Source: Candidatus Omnitrophota bacterium (GTDB lineage: Bacteria; Omnitrophota; Gorgyraeia; Zapsychrales; JANLHA01). From it: 39,959 nucleotides of DNA. Numbering within the stretch: position 1 is the stretch's first letter; the number at the start of each line of letters is the position of its first letter. The notes under the pieces were generated by a model. The model was not told where the DNA came from, searched no databases, and saw nothing but the letters and a program-made list of their open reading frames with translations. Shown piece after piece: positions 28,830 to 39,959 of this stretch. The translations under genes were made by a program, and so were the position numbers. The stretch lies in NCBI GenBank assembly GCA_023139575.1, contig JAGLNJ010000066.1, positions 1 to 39,959 on the forward strand. The letters are read 5' to 3'.

Positions 28830-30077
28830 ATGCCGAGATATTCTTATACAGTAAAAGACCCTCAAGGTAAGACAATCAATGAGATAACTGAAGCCTATGA
28901 CAAAAACAGTCTTGTGCAACAATTGCAAGGCAAAGGATTTTTTATTGTAAAAGTTGAAGAAGTCCCCATGGGTCCGGCACCGATTTCCACCAAATCTAAG
29001 GGCGGGAAAAAATCGAAGGTGTTCACCCATAAAAAGGTTAAACTCGACGACCTGATTTCTTTTGCACGGCAACTGACTACCATGTTAGAATCCGGTGTTA
29101 CTCTGCTACGCAGCCTCGAAGTTATCACCCAACAGTCTGAAAGTGAGAAGCTCTTTAATATACTTTCCAAAGTCAACAGGGATGTTGAACAAGGCAGTTC
29201 CCTTTCCCAGGCATTAGAAAAACATCCTAAAATTTTTAATCAGTTCTGGGTCAGTTTGATCGAAGTAGGGGAGGCCTCAGGAACAATGCCCATGGTCTTA
29301 AGCAAATTATCCTTTTATCTGGAGCAGCAAGCCGCTTTTAAGTCTACTATTGTTTCCGCCATTATGTACCCCATCATTCTTCTTTTTATCTGTCTGGGGG
29401 CGATCACTTTTTTTGCCCTCGTTGTCGGCCCGAGATTTGAGAACGTCTTTAACTCCATGGACATTGAGCTACCGCTCATCACCCGAGCTTTATTAGGGCT
29501 TTTCCGTTTCATTAAGGAGAAATTCATTCTAATAATAGTATTTACCAGTGTTTCAACTTTTTTATTTAAAAAATGGGCCAAAACCCGTAAAGGTCGCTTA
29601 CAAATAGAGAAAATTCTCTTTGGCATGCCTGTTGTCGGCAAAATAGTAAAATTAATTGTTGTTGAAAGATTCACATCGCAAATGGCCATTCTCGTAGAAA
29701 GCGGCGTACCCATACTTTACGCCCTGGATATCAGCGAAAGGCTTGTGAATAATATTACCTGTGCTCTCATCATTGCAGACATAAAAGAGCGGGTCCGTGA
29801 GGGCGAACTTCTGGTGGCCCCCATGGAGCGCAGCCATTTTTTTCCACCTATGGCCATACAGATGATCAATGTAGGAGAAGAAACCGGTGAATTGAGTAAA
29901 ATGCTCGGTCATGTGGCCCATTATTATCAAGACGTCGTGGAGACCTTTATGAAACGCTTAGGAACTGTGATTGAACCCTTTATGTTAGTCTTTATGGGTG
30001 CTATTATTGGTATAATCGTTTTGGCGATGTTTTTGCCCATGTTCAATATTTCCCAATTATCCGGAGCGGGGGGGTAA
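28830..30077 (+). CDS. PilC/GspF inner-membrane platform protein
   Basis: The 415-residue protein starts PRYSYTVKDPQGKTINE, the usual PilC/GspF beginning, and has two GspF domains: one from about 65 (FARQLTTMLESGVTLLRSLE, WVSLIEVGEASGTMP) and one from about 275 (FTSQMAILVESGVPILYALD, QMINVGEETGELSKML), each followed by hydrophobic spans (IILLFICLGAITFFALVVGP; FMLVFMGAIIGIIVLAMFLP). It is the membrane platform turned by the ATPase. It ends the assembly operon; the pilin genes have a separate promoter. Confidence 0.95.
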   Translation: MPRYSYTVKDPQGKTINEITEAYDKNSLVQQLQGKGFFIVKVEEVPMGPAPISTKSKGGKKSKVFTHKKVKLDDLISFARQLTTMLESGVTLLRSLEVITQQSESEKLFNILSKVNRDVEQGSSLSQALEKHPKIFNQFWVSLIEVGEASGTMPMVLSKLSFYLEQQAAFKSTIVSAIMYPIILLFICLGAITFFALVVGPRFENVFNSMDIELPLITRALLGLFRFIKEKFILIIVFTSVSTFLFKKWAKTRKGRLQIEKILFGMPVVGKIVKLIVVERFTSQMAILVESGVPILYALDISERLVNNITCALIIADIKERVREGELLVAPMERSHFFPPMAIQMINVGEETGELSKMLGHVAHYYQDVVETFMKRLGTVIEPFMLVFMGAIIGIIVLAMFLPMFNISQLSGAGG

Positions 30078-30137
30078 AACTTAAAAGAATGCGTTTTCAC
30101 AAAAAAGAAAATTTCTTAAAAATAACCTTGACTGGAA

Positions 30138-30166
30138 TTGACAACATTTATGATGTGTGTTATACC
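30138..30166 (+). promoter_or_regulatory. Strong sigma-70-type promoter for the pilin operon
   Basis: A perfect TTGACA (30138-30143), a 17-base spacer and TATACC (30161-30166) predict a start near 30173, just ahead of the riboswitch aptamer. The pilins can therefore be expressed apart from the machinery genes upstream. Confidence 0.75.
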
Positions 30167-30189
30167 TTACATAGGAAAACAATTTAGAG

Positions 30190-30268
30190 CACTTGTTAAA
30201 GGTAAACTATCCGTGAGGGTAGGGCACAAAGCTAAAGGGTCCCGGAAATGCGGGATAGCCAGTTGCCA
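30190..30268 (+). ncRNA. Cyclic di-GMP-I (GEMM-I) riboswitch aptamer
   Basis: The aptamer elements occur in order: GGTAAAC at the 5' side (30201-30207), hairpin CTATCC-GTGA-GGGTAG (30207-30222) with a GNRA tetraloop, the junction GGGCACAAAGCT (30222-30233), a second hairpin (GTCCCG paired with CGGGAT, 30239-30256), then ATAGCCAGTTGCC (30255-30267) closing the fold. This matches the GEMM-I consensus (GGCAAAC..GNRA..GGGACGCAAAGCC..GGGTC..GATAGCCAGGTTGCC). The base I align with the ligand-contacting G20 is a G (30201), favouring cyclic di-GMP over the cGAMP-selective variants that carry A. It precedes the pilin genes and an intrinsic terminator, so cyclic di-GMP probably controls pilin transcription. 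ON or OFF sense is not resolved. Confidence 0.9.
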
Positions 30269-30286
30269 ATATTAGGAATTATAAAG

Positions 30287-30325
30287 ATGCCTAAGCCACT
30301 CACACGGTGGTTTAGGCATTTTTTG
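30287..30325 (+). terminator. Intrinsic terminator of the riboswitch expression platform
   Basis: A perfect 13-bp stem, ATGCCTAAGCCAC (30287-30299) with GTGGTTTAGGCAT (30307-30319, one G-T pair), is followed directly by a T-run (30319-30324). It starts about 20 bases after the aptamer. A possible weak competitor is TTAGG (30272-30276), which can pair with CCTAA (30290-30294) in the left arm. Confidence 0.88.
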
Positions 30326-30463
30326 TTAACCCGGCAACCCCTGAAGGAGTGATGACCCGACAAAAACAAGATAGATCTTAGCAGATAGTTTAATTTTAAA
30401 CACGAAATTGAAAATTTCAGATCATCCTGAAATTTGATATAAGAAATTTAAAGGAGAATTAAA
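30326..30463 (+). promoter_or_regulatory. Pilin 5' leader downstream of the riboswitch terminator
   Basis: About 140 untranslated bases. GGCAAC (30332-30337) is complementary to GTTGCC at the aptamer 3' end (30262-30267). A perfect 9-bp hairpin AAATTTCAG/CTGAAATTT (30412-30420 and 30427-30435) lies upstream of the ribosome binding site AAGGAGA (30451-30457). The segment GGCAACCCCTGAAGGAGTGA looks faintly like the start of a second aptamer, but it lacks the rest. Confidence 0.5.
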
Positions 30464-30886
30464 ATGAAAAAGCAAAATAATAGCGGTTTTACACTGCTCG
30501 AAATCATTATCGTTATAATCATTGTTGGTGTTTTAGCCAGTTTGGCCTTACCCCGTTTTTTCAGTATGGTTGAATATTCAAAGAGTACCGAAGCCTTGGC
30601 GGCTCTTTCATCTGTGCGTCAATCCATCGAAAGATGCTATTTGATGAATCCTCAGAGTTATGCCGGTTGTGGTGATGGCGGTTTTGGTGAATTAGATCTT
30701 GAAGATCCAGCTAATTCACCTAATGCTCACTTCGATTATACTATTGGCACAGCGGCTAACGCTTACACTATTACTGCTAAACGTAATGCTGGTGATGGTG
30801 GTGACAATGTTTCTCTTATTGTTTTAACTCAAGAACTCGGAACCGTTGTAAGAAGCGGTACCGGAGTCTATTCAGGCATCAAATAA
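30464..30886 (+). CDS. Type IV pilin, probable major subunit (PilA/GspG-like)
   Basis: The 140-residue prepilin has a short basic leader (MKKQNNSG) and the class III site G-FTLLEIIIVIIIVGVLAS, with cleavage after Gly8 and Glu5 of the mature protein present. The rest is a small globular domain with one cysteine pair (ERCYLM and YAGCGD) and repeated Gly/Asp loops. Excellent ribosome binding site, first gene after the riboswitch, and a following stable hairpin suggest it is the most abundant subunit. No prepilin peptidase is in the window. Confidence 0.9.
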   Translation: MKKQNNSGFTLLEIIIVIIIVGVLASLALPRFFSMVEYSKSTEALAALSSVRQSIERCYLMNPQSYAGCGDGGFGELDLEDPANSPNAHFDYTIGTAANAYTITAKRNAGDGGDNVSLIVLTQELGTVVRSGTGVYSGIK

Positions 30887-30912
30887 TTATGCTGTTAATG
30901 CGTTAGGGCTTG

Positions 30913-30945
30913 GAAGCAACGCCGGAAATTTTCCGGTGTTGCTTC
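30913..30945 (+). other. Stable hairpin between the main pilin and the next pilin gene
   Basis: GAAGCAACGCCGG (30913-30925) pairs with CCGGTGTTGCTTC (30933-30945), 13 bp with one G-T. No T-run follows (TGAATATTT), so full termination is unlikely. Such intercistronic hairpins can protect the upstream mRNA, giving more major pilin than minor pilins. Confidence 0.6.
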
Positions 30946-30978
30946 TGAATATTTAACAAAAGAGGCCTATTTATAAAG

Positions 30979-31401
30979 ATGAAACAGGAATTAAGCTATA
31001 ATAAACAAGCTTTTACACTTTCTGAGATAGTCATTCTCACCATGGTCATAGGGTCTTTGTCAGCGGCTGCTATTGTGAACTACCAACCAGCCGTTGAAAA
31101 AATGCGTTCACATGAAGGAGAACAGATTTTACTTAACATATTAGCTTCTCAAAAACGCTTTTCTTTGGAGAATGGCGGTAATTATGCTAATCAACTTGCT
31201 GACTTAGATATCGAATTCCGCTCCTCAAATAAATTTAATGCCCCAACAGCTGCGAGCGTTAACCCGATAGGAAGTGTAACAAGAACCGGGGCATACACTT
31301 TGAGCATAGCTTATAATGACAATACACATGTAACTGATATCACCTGTGCCGATGGCCCGGCAGGGATATGCGCAAAGATGGGATTCCCCAAACAATATTA
31401 G
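30979..31401 (+). CDS. Pilin-like protein (minor pilin / pseudopilin)
   Basis: The 140-residue protein has the leader MKQELSYNKQA and site A-FTLSEIVILTMVIGSLSAAA, a class III pattern with Ala in place of Gly at -1 and Glu5 present. A soluble domain follows with a cysteine pair near the C-terminus (ITCADGPAGIC). It lies 92 bases after the main pilin and before a second pilin with an Ala -1 site. A role as minor or alternative subunit is inferred. Confidence 0.8.
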   Translation: MKQELSYNKQAFTLSEIVILTMVIGSLSAAAIVNYQPAVEKMRSHEGEQILLNILASQKRFSLENGGNYANQLADLDIEFRSSNKFNAPTAASVNPIGSVTRTGAYTLSIAYNDNTHVTDITCADGPAGICAKMGFPKQY

Positions 31402-31413
31402 ACTTTTCGGAGA

Positions 31414-31429
31414 ATGATCATATGATCAT
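31414..31429. repeat. 16-bp perfect palindrome over a pilin start codon
   Basis: ATGATCATATGATCAT is fully self-complementary, made of two copies of ATGATCAT, and contains the ATG chosen as the start of the next pilin gene (31422). It may be a protein-binding site, a weak start-codon-masking hairpin, or chance. Confidence 0.5.
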
Positions 31430-31844
31430 GAAAAAAAACAGGAAAGCATTCACGTTACTCGAAATAATGGTCGTCATCATCATTATTGGCGCTATTGCGG
31501 GGTTTGCGATCCCTAATTATACCAAAACTATTGAACGGGCGCATCTGCGGGATGCGATGATGCAATTGGAAACCATTCACGCGGCCAACAATTTATACCG
31601 CTCACGGACAGGCAGCTATTGGCCGGTTCCGGTAGGAGCCGTTGACCTGGCGGCCATAAACAACAATCTCGGAATTAATATTATCGGGAATGGCATGGAT
31701 TATTTTTGTAATGGGGTGGGCGACGGTTCAGCATTTTTGTGCTGGGCAGACCGCCAGTTAGCCGCGCCTAAAGATTTTCACGTTGAAGTAACTGAGTTGT
31801 CATTAGATGCGACGAATCCACTATGCACAGCCAACTGCCCTTAA
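31422..31844 (+). CDS. Pilin-like protein (GspG/PilE type)
   Basis: The frame is open from 31368, but that region overlaps the previous gene. The ATG at 31422 lies nine bases after GGAG (31409-31412) and gives MIMKKNRKA-FTLLEIMVVIIIIGAIAG, a class III prepilin of 140 residues with Ala at -1 and Glu5. A second ATG at 31428 is possible. The soluble part has YRSRTGSYWPVP and cysteines in YFCNGVGDG, FLCWAD and at the C-terminus (LCTANCP), the last resembling the disulfide loop of pilins. Confidence 0.8.
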   Translation: MIMKKNRKAFTLLEIMVVIIIIGAIAGFAIPNYTKTIERAHLRDAMMQLETIHAANNLYRSRTGSYWPVPVGAVDLAAINNNLGINIIGNGMDYFCNGVGDGSAFLCWADRQLAAPKDFHVEVTELSLDATNPLCTANCP

Positions 31845-31868
31845 TTTGTCGAAAAAAAGTGACTTTTT

Positions 31869-32261
31869 ATGCTTAAACTAATTATAAAAAATCAGCATGG
31901 CATGACCTTTGTAGAAGTCATAGTGGCTGCAATGATATTTTCCCTTACTTCTGCGGGGCTCTTTGCCACAATCACCGCCATTAACCGCCCGGCAGGGACA
32001 TCAACACGTGAAGTGAAAGCCGTCATGTTAGGAAAACAAATCCTTGATGGCCTGCGTAATGAAGTTGACGCGACTACCTGGGATGATATCTTGGGGAAAC
32101 TGGCAGCTAATGGCGGGGACGACGGCAATGGCCTTTTTGAACTGGGAGAAATTTATAATGAAGACGGTATTGCTTATAATGCCACATATCAAGTTAATAA
32201 TGACCCTGACATCAGTGCCAGAAAAGTCACTTTAAACATCACCTGGACGGAGATGGATTAA
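31869..32261 (+). CDS. Minor pilin, PilV/GspI-like
   Basis: The 130-residue protein has prepilin site QHG-MTFVEVIVAAMIFSLTSAG, the form typical of PilV and GspI minor pilins (xTxVEVxVAxxIF), with Glu5. A short soluble domain follows. It is one base upstream of the next minor pilin gene, and together they probably form the tip complex that primes assembly. Confidence 0.8.
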   Translation: MLKLIIKNQHGMTFVEVIVAAMIFSLTSAGLFATITAINRPAGTSTREVKAVMLGKQILDGLRNEVDATTWDDILGKLAANGGDDGNGLFELGEIYNEDGIAYNATYQVNNDPDISARKVTLNITWTEMD

Positions 32262-32262
32262 C

Positions 32263-32922
32263 GTGAATAAAGTTCTAAGAAATCAACTTTCCGGGCTCAC
32301 TCTGACTGAACTGCTTGTGTCCGTTATTCTGGTGGGCGTTGTCATGGTGGGGGTCATCTCAATGGACTTTGCCATGCGAAGCTCTAAAGAAACGACCAGT
32401 GACTATACGAACATGGTGATGAGACTCCAAGCCGCCATGATGGAGCTCGAAAGACTGGCTTTTGAAGTTGTCGGAGATGCCTCATCGGTAGATAGTATGA
32501 CCTTGGGCATCCACACTAATTATGATGACTCTAATTCAAGCTTTCCACACAATCCAATTTGTTTTCGAACGGATACGAACACACCAATAACGCTTGATGA
32601 TTACAGTGATGATGTCTGGGCATGTTTTTATCATGGTTTTTCCTTTGATTTATACCGATATCCTTACCGCAACACCCCTTGCGATTTTGACGCGGATTGT
32701 GGTGGGGCGGCCGTGCACAAATTTGTGTGTTCCCTGTCCGAGAAGGCGATTTTCGCCACGGTCAACACGGCAGGTGGAGATTATTTAATCAATGGCGGAA
32801 CTTTTGATTATCTTCAAATCACCTTAACATCCAGAGTATACCAAACACAACCAGCTCACCCTATTAAAAACCCGGAATATACCCTAACCACCCGTGTAAG
32901 CCCGCCCGGCATCAGCCGCTAA
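32263..32922 (+). CDS. Minor pilin, PilW/GspJ-like
   Basis: Start is a GTG at 32263, one base after the previous stop. The 219-residue prepilin has site LSG-LTLTELLVSVILVGVVMVG with Glu5, and a larger globular domain, as in PilW and GspJ (MRLQAAMMELERLAFEV). Cysteines occur at PICFR, VWACFY, TPCDFDADCG and KFVCSL. It is the last gene of the pilin operon. Confidence 0.8.
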   Translation: MNKVLRNQLSGLTLTELLVSVILVGVVMVGVISMDFAMRSSKETTSDYTNMVMRLQAAMMELERLAFEVVGDASSVDSMTLGIHTNYDDSNSSFPHNPICFRTDTNTPITLDDYSDDVWACFYHGFSFDLYRYPYRNTPCDFDADCGGAAVHKFVCSLSEKAIFATVNTAGGDYLINGGTFDYLQITLTSRVYQTQPAHPIKNPEYTLTTRVSPPGISR

Positions 32923-36181: not shown

Positions 36182-36448
36182 ATGTATAAAAGCATCAATA
36201 AATTAATTCTTAAGGTAACGTCATTTTCTGTTCTTTTGGTATTTTTATCAAGCTTGATAATTTTACCTTTATCAGCTAATGCCCAAAATTTTCCAGATTT
36301 ATCTCAACCTAGTTCAATGGTTCCTATAAGCAATAGCCATTCCTTCCCGACATTGACTGGATAAAATATGCGTATTGATAATTCTTTTCAGTTTGGTTTT
36401 ATTGTTGATCCAAGTAATGATCATTTAACAAGAAAGCAATTACGGCAA
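36182..36448 (+). pseudogene. Broken 5' fragment of a giant exported protein gene
   Basis: A signal peptide (LKVTSFSVLLVFLSSLIILP, then LSANAQ) leads into a stretch ending PTLTG and a TAA at 36362-36364. The same frame continues after the stop with NMRIDNSFQFGFIVDPSND. This aligns with residues about 55-90 of the intact giant ORF downstream (PGVMVTRSPVFLPAILRG, then YQDNPLRFDFIVDTGD). The fragment is therefore a paralogue with a premature stop that loses homology near 36440, where an IS200 transposase remnant begins. Confidence 0.75.
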
Positions 36449-36461
36449 GGGAGATGTTTAA

Positions 36462-36629
36462 AAGATTCCTGAAGTGAAGAAAAAGTTGTTGGGAAGTGAG
36501 TTTTGGGCGAAAGGATATTTTGTCAACACAGTGGGACAGCATGGAAAGGAAAAAATGATACGAGGATATGTTAAAAATCAAGGTAAAGAGAAAGAATATA
36601 AGCAGTTACACAAATTTAAATCTCTTTAG
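36462..36629 (+). pseudogene. IS200/IS605-family transposase C-terminal remnant
   Basis: This 55-codon frame after a TAA (36459-36461) reads KIPEVKKKLLGSEFWAKGYF, VNTVGQHGKE and MIRGYVKNQGKE, then YKQLHKFKSL and a stop. It matches the last third of Y1 (HuH) transposases of the IS200 group, including the helix that carries the catalytic tyrosine (RGYVKNQ). The HuH metal-binding part and the left end are missing, so it is inactive. It ends two bases before the ATG of the giant ORF. Confidence 0.8.
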
Positions 36630-36631
36630 TT

Positions 36632-39600
36632 ATGGAAATTGTTCAAATGCGAAAATTTCGATTTTTATTTTATATGGTGGATTGGTTTGTTGTGTTTTTC
36701 TTTGTATTCACTGTATTAATGCCGACGCGGGGGCATGCTCAGGGAGTGACTGCCGGTGTGGGAGGTGGCACTGTAGCGGGCCTTCCTCTACCCGGCGTAA
36801 TGGTGACGCGGAGTCCGGTGTTTTTGCCCGCGATTCTTAGGGGAATCAAGCTCTATCAGGATAATCCTCTGCGGTTTGATTTTATTGTTGATACAGGCGA
36901 CACTGATCTAAAAGGTAATGGATTGGAAAAAGAAACCTCCAAGCTGATCAGATATTTCCTCACCTCATTAACTATTCCTGAAGATGACCTATGGGTCAAC
37001 CTTTCCCCTTACGAAAGCGGCAGGATTATTCCTGATAAATTCGGTATAACCGAGATGGGAAGGGACCTGCTTGCCCAGGATTACATCCTTAAACAGTTGA
37101 CCGCGTCTTTAATGTATCCTGAAGACGCCTTAGGGGAGAAATTCTGGGAAAAGGTTTATGCCAAGGCGAATGAACTTTATGGCACAACTGAATTGCCGAT
37201 TAATACCTTTAATAAAGTCTGGATACTTCCTGAAAACGCGGTTGTCTATGAGAATGGAGATACCGCGTTTATTGTAGAGAGCCATCTTAAGGTGATGCTG
37301 GAGCAGGATTATTTTGCCTTGAGTAAAAATTCAAATAAAAACAACTCCCGATTTGATAATAATCAATTAACAGCGGGCAATGAGTCAGTCTCCTTCAGTG
37401 ACGTTTCTTCTTCAATTATCAGGGAAGTAATCCTGCCGGAGATTGAAAAAGAGGTTAACGAGGGTGAGGATTTTATCCAATTAAGGCAGATTTATCATTC
37501 TCTGATATTAGCGGCATGGTTCAAGCGCAATCTCAAAAATAGCATGTTGGGAAAAATTTACGTGGGGCAAAATAAAATTACAGGCATAAATATTGCGGAT
37601 ACAAAAATAAAAGAGAAAATTTACCATCAATACATGCGGGCATTCAAGACAGGTGTGTACAATTATATCCGCGAGGACTACGACCCTGATACTAAAAATC
37701 TGATTTCCAGAAAATATTTTTCAGGTGGAGCGCGATTTACCAAGGAAGTAACAGATGCGGCAATGTTGGTGAATTCAGGAAAAGAATTGAGGGAAACGGC
37801 GAAAAAAAAGATCCCTCCAAAAAGACTGCAAACAGCGGCAATAATACTGGATGTAACAGGCAGACCGAAACTAGAAGGAATAGAAGTAACAGACGAGGAG
37901 ATCGCGGCAATAGCTGAACGCCAGGTCATGGTCGCAGGGCTTATTATGCGGCATAGCCGGGTTGCGGAAGATGACTTATTACAAATATTTGGTGATCTTA
38001 ATGACGCATTGGCCTCAATTTTCAGGGATTTACGCTTTGACACTAAAGCGGAAAAACTTAAAATGGAACTCTTTGGGATTTGGAGGAATTTTCAGATTAA
38101 TAGAGATGATCCTGAAAAGTTGATGACAAGATTTTTTCGCGAGATTGAGTTGCTTCAGGAAGAGTCAAGAAGTGCGGGAGTACAGCAGGATAAAGTTGGT
38201 ACGCGTTTAAAATTATTTAAAGATTTTGAAGAAATGCTTCTAACTGAATACGAGGAATTTAAACAGATTGAAAAGGAATATTTGCCAAAAATAAGCAGCC
38301 GGTTTGATGAGCAGATAAAAGGGATTCATAAAAATTTTAAAGACGCAATCTTGTATATTGCCTGGATGAACCGTTTTTTTGTCGGCAAAACAGAAGATGA
38401 TGAACATATGCTAAAAGATATACTAGTATATGCGATTGACATATATTTTGAGGAAGGGGTTCCCGATGTAATTGCAGAATTTGAAGACATTGTGATATGG
38501 GGAGATATAGGGCTAAAATGTGCATTTAGTATGATTTCAAGCGATTTATTTTATAAAGAGATTAGAACTTGGTTTGAATTCAGTGAAAAAAACGATTATT
38601 TTATTGTAGATATAATATCTCCAGGGTCACTTATGACTTCAGAGGAGATTGAGGAATTTAAAGAATTATGTGAGCGTAGAGCGGGGGAATTAAAGATAGC
38701 ACGCGAGATATTTGATATGCATGGCATTAAGATTGAACCGTCTTATGATCAGGAAATAAAAGGCTCCAGGTTTAGAATCAGGATACCAAAGTCAAGGATT
38801 GGGTATAAAAAGAAAATTGGTTCCCAGCCTGCAGAATTAACCTTTCATGAAAAGCGGATTTTAGACGAGTTATATCCTATAGCGCGGCGGTGGGGAAACT
38901 TTTTAGCTTTTGAGGCATATTTTTATGATGACGTGCAAGAAAAATGGGCTGAAAAGGATAGCGAACGTTTCCGCGGTCTTGAAAAATTAGTGGAAGGGTA
39001 TTGGAATAAGTTCCCTGAATTTCTTGAGATTTTGAAAAAGCCTTCTTTAAAAGGTGAATTTTTAAATAATGAAATGGCCTTTGTTAAGTTATTTTTATCA
39101 ACGACAGCAGAACAAAACAGGGAAATTAAGGAACAAATCGATGAATTAGTTGAGAATGTGCCTGAAATGGGAAAGGATGAGGTATTCAAAAAATTTTGCA
39201 GGGTGCATAAATTTTATTTCGATCGTTTCAGGGCAAAATTAAGAAATGATTATAACGCGGGAAATATTGAAAAAGAGGCTGTTGATTTGAATTTGGTAAT
39301 AGAGGATTTAATTAAAGACCATTTTAAACTTCGCGGTATTAAAGAAAATTATGATAATAATATCGGGATAATATCTCTTGATAATAAGATATTCCCGACA
39401 GTGATCTTTAATATATTAAAATTTATTAACTTACCGAGTTTTTTACAAGGGCCACAGGAAGGGGAAATTCAAATAAGCACTGCTTTAGAGAAAAGGGCGG
39501 AGAGGGATAATGTGAAAATAGAGATATCGTACGCAGGGACAGATGTGCTTGCGTCTGTTTTAGGTGAAGAGCCGGAGAGAGTGTTTGAATCTTATCCTAC

Positions 39601-39959
39601 GATAATAATGGAACACGGTATAAATGCCCGGCTGGATATCAGTGCAAAAATAATTAAGGCGCATAAAGGGAAGATTACTGTTGAAGTAGTTTCGACAAAA
39701 GAAGTAAAATTTACAATCACTCTGCCTGCTGACGCTGCAATGGCAGCGGAAACTGTTTCTCCTGAAGAACTTGTGTCTTCATTGAATAAAAAGGAAAAAG
39801 GTGGTATTGATTTTAATCCTGAGAGGTTGGATATTCAGAGGCGAGGTGAAGGTATAAATTTTGATGCGTATTCCGGTAGCGGGCAAGATGGTCAGAAAGG
39901 TGGGGGTGATTTTTACGGCATTCAGGTTGATGGCTTTGTCCCTGTGATTTTCAGTATTA
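36632..39959 (+). CDS. Giant exported protein with a divergent histidine-kinase-ATPase-like region, 3' end outside window
   Basis: The frame from the ATG at 36632 stays open to the window edge, over 1109 codons; a second ATG at 36647 is possible. An N-terminal hydrophobic signal (FVVFFFVFTVLMPTRGHAQ) suggests export. Conserved-looking blocks include residues 65-90 (ILRGIKLYQDNPLRFDFIVD), DLWVNLSPYESGRIIPDKFG (119-138), EMGRDLLAQDYILKQLTASL and FNKVWILPENAVVYENGDTA (from 193). A long, charged, helical middle follows. Residues about 982-1032 (ERVFESYP, SAKIIKAHKGKITVEVVS, KFTITLPAD) resemble the G2-to-end part of a HATPase_c fold, but the GxG nucleotide-binding glycines are not seen. GGIDFNPERLDIQRRGEGI (from 1057) and VDGFVPVIF follow. 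I associate this protein type with Omnitrophota; function unknown. Confidence 0.85.
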   Translation, partial: MEIVQMRKFRFLFYMVDWFVVFFFVFTVLMPTRGHAQGVTAGVGGGTVAGLPLPGVMVTRSPVFLPAILRGIKLYQDNPLRFDFIVDTGDTDLKGNGLEKETSKLIRYFLTSLTIPEDDLWVNLSPYESGRIIPDKFGITEMGRDLLAQDYILKQLTASLMYPEDALGEKFWEKVYAKANELYGTTELPINTFNKVWILPENAVVYENGDTAFIVESHLKVMLEQDYFALSKNSNKNNSRFDNNQLTAGNESVSFSDVSSSIIREVILPEIEKEVNEGEDFIQLRQIYHSLILAAWFKRNLKNSMLGKIYVGQNKITGINIADTKIKEKIYHQYMRAFKTGVYNYIREDYDPDTKNLISRKYFSGGARFTKEVTDAAMLVNSGKELRETAKKKIPPKRLQTAAIILDVTGRPKLEGIEVTDEEIAAIAERQVMVAGLIMRHSRVAEDDLLQIFGDLNDALASIFRDLRFDTKAEKLKMELFGIWRNFQINRDDPEKLMTRFFREIELLQEESRSAGVQQDKVGTRLKLFKDFEEMLLTEYEEFKQIEKEYLPKISSRFDEQIKGIHKNFKDAILYIAWMNRFFVGKTEDDEHMLKDILVYAIDIYFEEGVPDVIAEFEDIVIWGDIGLKCAFSMISSDLFYKEIRTWFEFSEKNDYFIVDIISPGSLMTSEEIEEFKELCERRAGELKIAREIFDMHGIKIEPSYDQEIKGSRFRIRIPKSRIGYKKKIGSQPAELTFHEKRILDELYPIARRWGNFLAFEAYFYDDVQEKWAEKDSERFRGLEKLVEGYWNKFPEFLEILKKPSLKGEFLNNEMAFVKLFLSTTAEQNREIKEQIDELVENVPEMGKDEVFKKFCRVHKFYFDRFRAKLRNDYNAGNIEKEAVDLNLVIEDLIKDHFKLRGIKENYDNNIGIISLDNKIFPTVIFNILKFINLPSFLQGPQEGEIQISTALEKRAERDNVKIEISYAGTDVLASVLGEEPERVFESYPTIIMEHGINARLDISAKIIKAHKGKITVEVVSTKEVKFTITLPADAAMAAETVSPEELVSSLNKKEKGGIDFNPERLDIQRRGEGINFDAYSGSGQDGQKGGGDFYGIQVDGFVPVIFSI

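What the first reader, a model, noticed from the sequence alone, without database searches (positions are those of the whole stretch)
36632..39959. Giant exported protein ending in a divergent, apparently glycine-less histidine-kinase ATPase-like region
The open frame exceeds 1100 codons and starts with an export signal. Near the C-terminus ERVFESYP...SAKIIKAHKGKITVEVVS...FTITLP follows the order of the distal HATPase_c fold (G1-like F-box region, helix, final strands), but GTGLGL-type glycines are replaced by EHGINARLDIS. A kinase fold outside the cytoplasm with lost nucleotide loops would be a repurposed scaffold or binding domain.
Basis: partly seen in the sequence, partly recalled or inferred. 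Interest (0 to 1): 0.75.

Follow-up and report, generated by a model that had tools for sequence, protein, structure and literature searches.

The report
Exported Omnitrophota carrier with dead kinase-fold cargo
This gene belongs to a large, apparently undescribed family of exported bacterial proteins in which the same head and tail carry many different borrowed enzyme domains; here the cargo is a pair of sensor-kinase folds, of which the better-preserved one has lost its ATP-binding site.

Summary
ORF 36632-39958 (1109 aa, cut by the contig end) has an export signal and a C-terminal GHKL/HATPase_c region (Pfam 28.9 bits, above the 26.4 cut-off). Its N, G1 and G2 boxes are degenerate (FNILKFI, SYAGTDV, EHGINARLDIS). 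A second, more eroded copy lies at residues 595-735. The larger finding is the frame around it. The protein is one of about 20 copies in this genome, and up to 85 per genome in relatives, of an Omnitrophota carrier family. Members share a signal peptide, a ~330-aa head with no Pfam, NCBIfam or PDB relative, a variable cargo and a C-terminal GGIDFN...VPVIINI tail. In this order, D-x-A-M motifs sit between modules (20-fold enriched, none inside the domains tested). Cargo in other members includes divergent TIM, PGK, enolase, GAPDH, aldolase, hexokinase, GH116 and PMI; where tested (TIM, PGK), nearly every genome also keeps one stand-alone copy. At least six other carriers have GHKL cargo with intact boxes, so the degeneration is specific to this copy. 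Modularity is well supported and export strongly suggested by sequence; D-x-A-M cleavage and cargo function are inferred.

The parts
36632..39958 (+). Carrier protein gene, 1109 aa, 3' end cut by the contig end
   Evidence: family membership
36632..36745 (+). N-terminal signal peptide (hydrophobic core, ...TRGHAQ)
   Evidence: sequence; 122/126 members alike
36782..37729 (+). Conserved head module, residues ~51-366, with 46 invariant columns in 91 members
   Evidence: no Pfam/NCBIfam/PDB relative
37754..37771 (+). D-x-A-M motif DAAMLV between head and cargo
38414..38836 (+). Second, strongly eroded GHKL-like domain (residues 595-735)
   Evidence: hhalign E 1e-6, probability 83%; shuffles E 0.17-0.98
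39269..39736 (+). Degenerate HATPase_c/GHKL domain (residues 880-1035)
39407..39424 (+). Degenerate N box (FNILKF)
39527..39547 (+). Degenerate G1 box (SYAGTDV)
39611..39643 (+). Degenerate G2 box (EHGINARLDIS)
39731..39748 (+). D-x-A-M motif DAAMAA at the end of the HATPase domain
39800..39958 (+). C-terminal tail GGIDFNP...VDGFVPVIFSI, incomplete at the contig end
36182..36480 (+). Decayed copy of the signal peptide plus head module upstream, with in-frame stop
   Evidence: read by eye

Best explanation
The gene encodes a member of an Omnitrophota family of exported modular carrier proteins. SHOWN: a signal-peptide-like N-terminus, a ~330-aa head of strongly constrained sequence, a variable cargo, D-x-A-M motifs at module borders (in this order), and a conserved C-terminal GGID...VPVIINI tail, in tens of paralogues per genome with unrelated cargoes. 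The cargoes resemble ordinary cytosolic proteins (glycolytic enzymes, kinases, GHKL ATPases, response regulators); where tested they are more divergent than the genomes' stand-alone copies and have kept active-site residues to varying degrees. INFERRED: the signal peptide directs Sec export; head and tail are recognised by one shared sorting or assembly apparatus outside the cytoplasm; D-x-A-M linkers are unstructured joints and possibly cleavage sites that free the modules; cargoes arose by in-frame capture of gene copies and are then re-used or decay. In the window protein the cargo is two tandem histidine-kinase-core (GHKL) folds. It should not bind ATP in the usual way nor work as a kinase, so its likeliest role, if any, is a non-catalytic binding or dimerisation module.
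For: Shared head with divergent middles: 20 further stretches of the head at 48-63% identity in the own genome; 25 of 28 relatives, up to 85 copies each; 135 of 384 genomes across the phylum. Head conservation over 91 sequences. Tail in 71 of 90 members with an intact 3' end, and also in divergent members of other families. D.AM[LMVTIF][SAGTV] at 0.66 per 1000 aa against 0.034 in other ORFs; 0 of 22 D.AM sites inside 3823 aa of annotated domains; a PGK at 1194-1636 is flanked by sites at 1186 and 1638. Signal-peptide-like start in 122/126. Cargo Pfam tallies. One stand-alone TIM and PGK in nearly every genome, with extra lower-scoring copies mainly inside giant ORFs. GHKL assignment.
Against: No expression, localisation or protease data. 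D-x-A-M motifs are absent from the divergent members in other families, so they are not essential to the family. Cargo needing ATP or NAD has no obvious substrate in a periplasm. The fold model of the cargo was built on an alignment of histidine kinases and leans towards that fold; its remainder is low confidence (mean pLDDT 58.5). No homologue of residues 405-595 was found.
Confidence: 0.6

Rival explanations
1. Effector delivery: the carriers bring working enzymes and signalling domains into a host or prey cell, whose cytoplasm supplies ATP and substrates; head and tail are delivery signals.
For: Several cargoes keep catalytic residues: GHKL boxes intact in at least six carriers; two embedded TIMs keep Lys/His/Glu, and one embedded PGK keeps all 10 active-site residues checked. 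Fic, AvrB/AvrC and PLD matches occur among cargoes. Omnitrophota are reported as host-dependent or predatory (PMC10066038).
Against: No injection machinery was linked to the family; the window cargo and some other cargoes are dead (PGK of L226 lost His62); a Sec signal alone leads to the periplasm.
Confidence: 0.25
2. Birth-and-death family: cargoes are captured copies kept only as bulk, adhesive or antigen-like surface modules, and catalytic sites decay without consequence.
For: Embedded PGKs keep only 85-104 of 159 near-invariant columns; window domains degenerate; a decayed head copy lies just upstream; several tail-bearing ORFs begin in mid-protein, as broken genes would.
Against: Long-diverged GHKL carriers, most in one clade (94/93), keep all three boxes, which neutral decay would not do.
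Confidence: 0.3
3. A single repurposed extracytoplasmic histidine-kinase scaffold.
For: Degenerate GHKL fold in an apparently exported protein.
Against: The architecture is shared with many carriers bearing unrelated cargo, so the kinase fold is not the defining part.
Confidence: 0.1
4. Not exported: the hydrophobic N-terminus is an anchor and head plus cargo face the cytoplasm, where ATP is available.
For: Many cargo families are cytosolic enzymes; in a divergent complete genome the N-terminal helix looks more like an uncleaved anchor (L255-L257).
Against: 101 of 126 members have an A-x-A-like site after the hydrophobic core; Tat-like segments also occur among cargoes.
Confidence: 0.15

Closest known systems
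HATPase_c / GHKL superfamily (Pfam PF02518), histidine-kinase core
   Same: Fold, strand/helix order and significant profile match of residues 880-1035
   Different: N, G1 and G2 residues lost, no H box, export signal, embedded in a carrier
Giant ORFs of Omnitrophota (PMC10066038; Velamenicoccus archaeovorus 39,678-aa protein)
   Same: Same phylum, large apparently extracellular proteins with few recognised domains
   Different: Those reports name transmembrane helices, adhesin domains and unknown regions; the shared head, tail, D-x-A-M joints and housekeeping-enzyme cargo were not found described in the passages read
Polymorphic toxin/effector carriers (conserved trafficking region plus variable payload)
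   Same: Conserved delivery-like region with exchangeable payload, many paralogues
   Different: Payload lies between a conserved head and a conserved tail and is mostly metabolic or signalling rather than toxic; immunity genes were not searched for
Bacterial C-terminal sorting tags (type IX CTD, sortase-type signals)
   Same: Short conserved C-terminal region on unrelated exported proteins
   Different: GGIDFN...VPVIINI motif does not resemble those signals; comparison from memory, not tested

Membership tests
HATPase_c / GHKL ATPase | Profile match over the curated cut-off | tested here: met
   28.9 bits against 26.4; hhalign 99.4%
HATPase_c / GHKL ATPase | N box, G1 (D-x-G-x-G) and G2 (G-x-G-x-G) nucleotide-binding residues | tested here: not met
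   FNILKFI / SYAGTDV / EHGINARLDIS
HATPase_c / GHKL ATPase | Fold | tested here: inconclusive
   High pLDDT over most of residues 880-1032 and top PDB matches to histidine kinases, but the alignment consisted of kinases
Histidine kinase | Phospho-acceptor H box | tested here: not met
   No H-box pattern in the 180 residues before the domain
Omnitrophota carrier family defined here | Head module | tested here: met
   563 bits to the head HMM, which was seeded with this protein; 48-63% identity to paralogues
Omnitrophota carrier family defined here | C-terminal GGI[DN][FLM] tail | tested here: met
   GGIDF at 39800, truncated by contig end
Omnitrophota carrier family defined here | D-x-A-M at module borders (this order only) | tested here: met
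   residues 375 and 1034
Polymorphic toxin/effector systems | Toxic payload with adjacent immunity gene | not tested
   No systematic search for immunity genes

The most novel reading that the evidence does not exclude
A bacterial phylum runs a general export carrier system: one conserved head and tail ship polyproteins loaded with active copies of the cell's own central-metabolism and signalling enzymes, divided by a short D-x-A-M processing motif, to act outside the cell or in a partner cell.
Probability: 0.3. Interest if true: 0.92.

Novelty: new variant of a known kind. Interest (0 to 1): 0.68.

Why it matters
Giant ORFs of Omnitrophota have been reported as functionally obscure. A shared head, tail and linker give a testable handle: they define a family, its modules and its likely export, and predict cleavage sites. 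They also show that enzymes such as PGK and TIM can be present twice, once as the ordinary stand-alone enzyme and once in an apparently exported carrier, which raises a direct question about activity outside the cytoplasm.

Tried and rejected
No orthologue of the window cargo as a whole was found in 384 genomes of the class; hits were to the HATPase part only. Foldseek of the head against PDB gave nothing better than E 0.45, and a profile search of PDB sequences gave none. Residues 405-595 and 735-880 do not resemble the kinase profile. The idea that the domain match was spurious was rejected by the curated cut-off and, for the second copy, by shuffles. One PGK position (R38) was mis-indexed and is not used. 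Literature searches found no description of the family; bioRxiv and many subscription papers are not held, including the West-Roberts 2023 preprint on giant genes.

Full report
1. Observation. The ORF 36632-39958 is open for 1109 codons and runs off the contig. It starts with a hydrophobic export-type segment. Pfam finds one family, HATPase_c, at residues 927-1034 with 28.9 bits against a curated 26.4. A local HMM built from histidine kinases of related genomes scores 64.6 bits, E 2.9e-18. In the alignment the N box reads FNILKFI, G1 reads SYAGTDV and G2 reads EHGINARLDIS, so the Asp and the glycine pattern that hold ATP are gone. No H box precedes it.

2. A second copy. Residues 595-735 align to the same kinase profile with E 1e-6 (probability 83%), against 0.17-0.98 for eight shuffles, and the neighbouring segments 405-595 and 735-880 do not match. 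The cargo thus looks like two tandem kinase cores, the first more eroded. Carriers L282 and L285 also hold two GHKL domains each.

3. The frame. Searching the own genome with the whole protein gives 21 further matches to its N-terminal part, 20 of them at 48-63% identity, in ORFs whose remainders do not align to it apart from the short tail; a few are fragments, so 'about 20 copies' is the safe statement. Relatives carry 1-85 head copies (25 of 28 genomes), and 135 of 384 genomes across the phylum have one. Named records with the head are nearly all Candidatus Omnitrophota MAGs. The head has 46 invariant columns in 91 members, models with pLDDT 75 and pTM 0.70, and has no relative in Pfam, NCBIfam or PDB.

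4. Tail and linkers. GGI[DN][FLM] followed by a VPVIINI-like stretch ends 71 of 90 members with an intact 3' end. D.AM[LMVTIF][SAGTV] is about 20 times denser in the family than in other ORFs of the same loci. In ten members with located domains, none of 22 D.AM sites fell inside 3823 aa of domains; about 4.3 would be expected from length alone. An embedded PGK is flanked by sites 8 aa before and 2 aa after it. In the window protein the sites are at residues 375 and 1034; the second overlaps the last residues of the HATPase match and was counted as inside in the pooled test (1 of 24, P 0.034). In L025 and L281 a D.AM site is followed at once by an RRDFL Tat-like segment, as if whole genes had been joined. 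The divergent members of other families have head and tail but no D.AM.

5. Cargo. Own-genome members carry GH116, ARMT1 plus phosphomannose isomerase, NUDIX plus GNAT, and an epimerase. In 73 members from other genomes, Pfam finds TIM, PGK, enolase, GAPDH, both aldolases, phosphoglucomutase, hexokinase, adenylate kinase, isocitrate lyase, glutamate dehydrogenase, GHKL, response regulators, Fic, ABC1, AvrB/AvrC and others, mostly one or two each. TIM and PGK were tested across 28 genomes. Nearly every genome has one stand-alone copy, and the extra, lower-scoring copies lie mainly in large ORFs, one PGK in an ORF of 8222 aa; not every one of those ORFs was checked for the head. Embedded TIMs (29-44% identity) keep Lys, His and Glu; embedded PGKs keep 85-104 of 159 near-invariant columns. 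Of ten PGK active-site positions checked, the copies keep 10 (L220), 9 (L222), 8 (L223), 7 (L221) and 6 (L226). Cargo is therefore a mixture of apparently intact and damaged enzymes.

6. GHKL cargo elsewhere. Carriers L164, L281, L282, L283, L285 and L289, from six different genomes, keep recognisable N, G1 and G2 boxes. Six of the nine carrier-borne GHKL domains form one clade (94/93), and the label is more clustered than in any of 500 shuffles; the window domain is on a long branch and its place is unsure. Loss of the boxes is thus a property of this copy, not of the family.

7. Mechanism. Shown: architecture, repetition, conservation, motif placement, degeneration. Inferred: Sec export, a shared receiving apparatus, cleavage at D-x-A-M, gene capture, and a non-catalytic role for the window cargo. 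Intact active sites argue that some cargoes act; if so they need substrates beyond a normal periplasm, which makes delivery to a partner cell possible but unproven. Omnitrophota are described as host-dependent with functionally obscure giant ORFs (PMC10066038).

8. Verdict. The more important result is the family of which it is a part. The family as such was not found described in the papers searched, with the limits of that library.

Noticed in passing
window 36182-36480: Decayed copy of the signal peptide and head module with an in-frame stop, directly upstream of the intact gene (read by eye).
   Followed up: partly
window ~36475-36625: Remnant resembling the C-terminus of an IS200-like/REP-associated transposase (GSEFWAKGYFVNTVGQHGKEKMIRGYVKNQGK) between the decayed copy and the gene; identified by eye only.
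   Followed up: no
window 28830-32922: Run of genes with type IV pilin-like N-termini (GFTLLEI) and a PilC-like membrane protein upstream.
   Followed up: no
L025:3497-9370(-), L026:127-4245(+), L281: Internal Tat-like RRxFL segments inside carriers, in L025 and L281 immediately after a D-x-A-M motif, suggesting captured whole genes.
   Followed up: partly
L224 (G008:C56): A divergent PGK inside an 8222-aa open frame; presence of the carrier head there was not checked.
   Followed up: no
L251-L260: Divergent carriers in other families keep the head and, where the end is held, mostly a GGID-type tail, but lack D-x-A-M; some tails continue with a conserved EWxxIxxMxxxGIxPSxxRIKEYL-like stretch.
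   Followed up: partly
L080, L114, L118, L140: Tail-bearing ORFs without a head that begin in mid-protein, likely broken carriers or assembly frameshifts.
   Followed up: no
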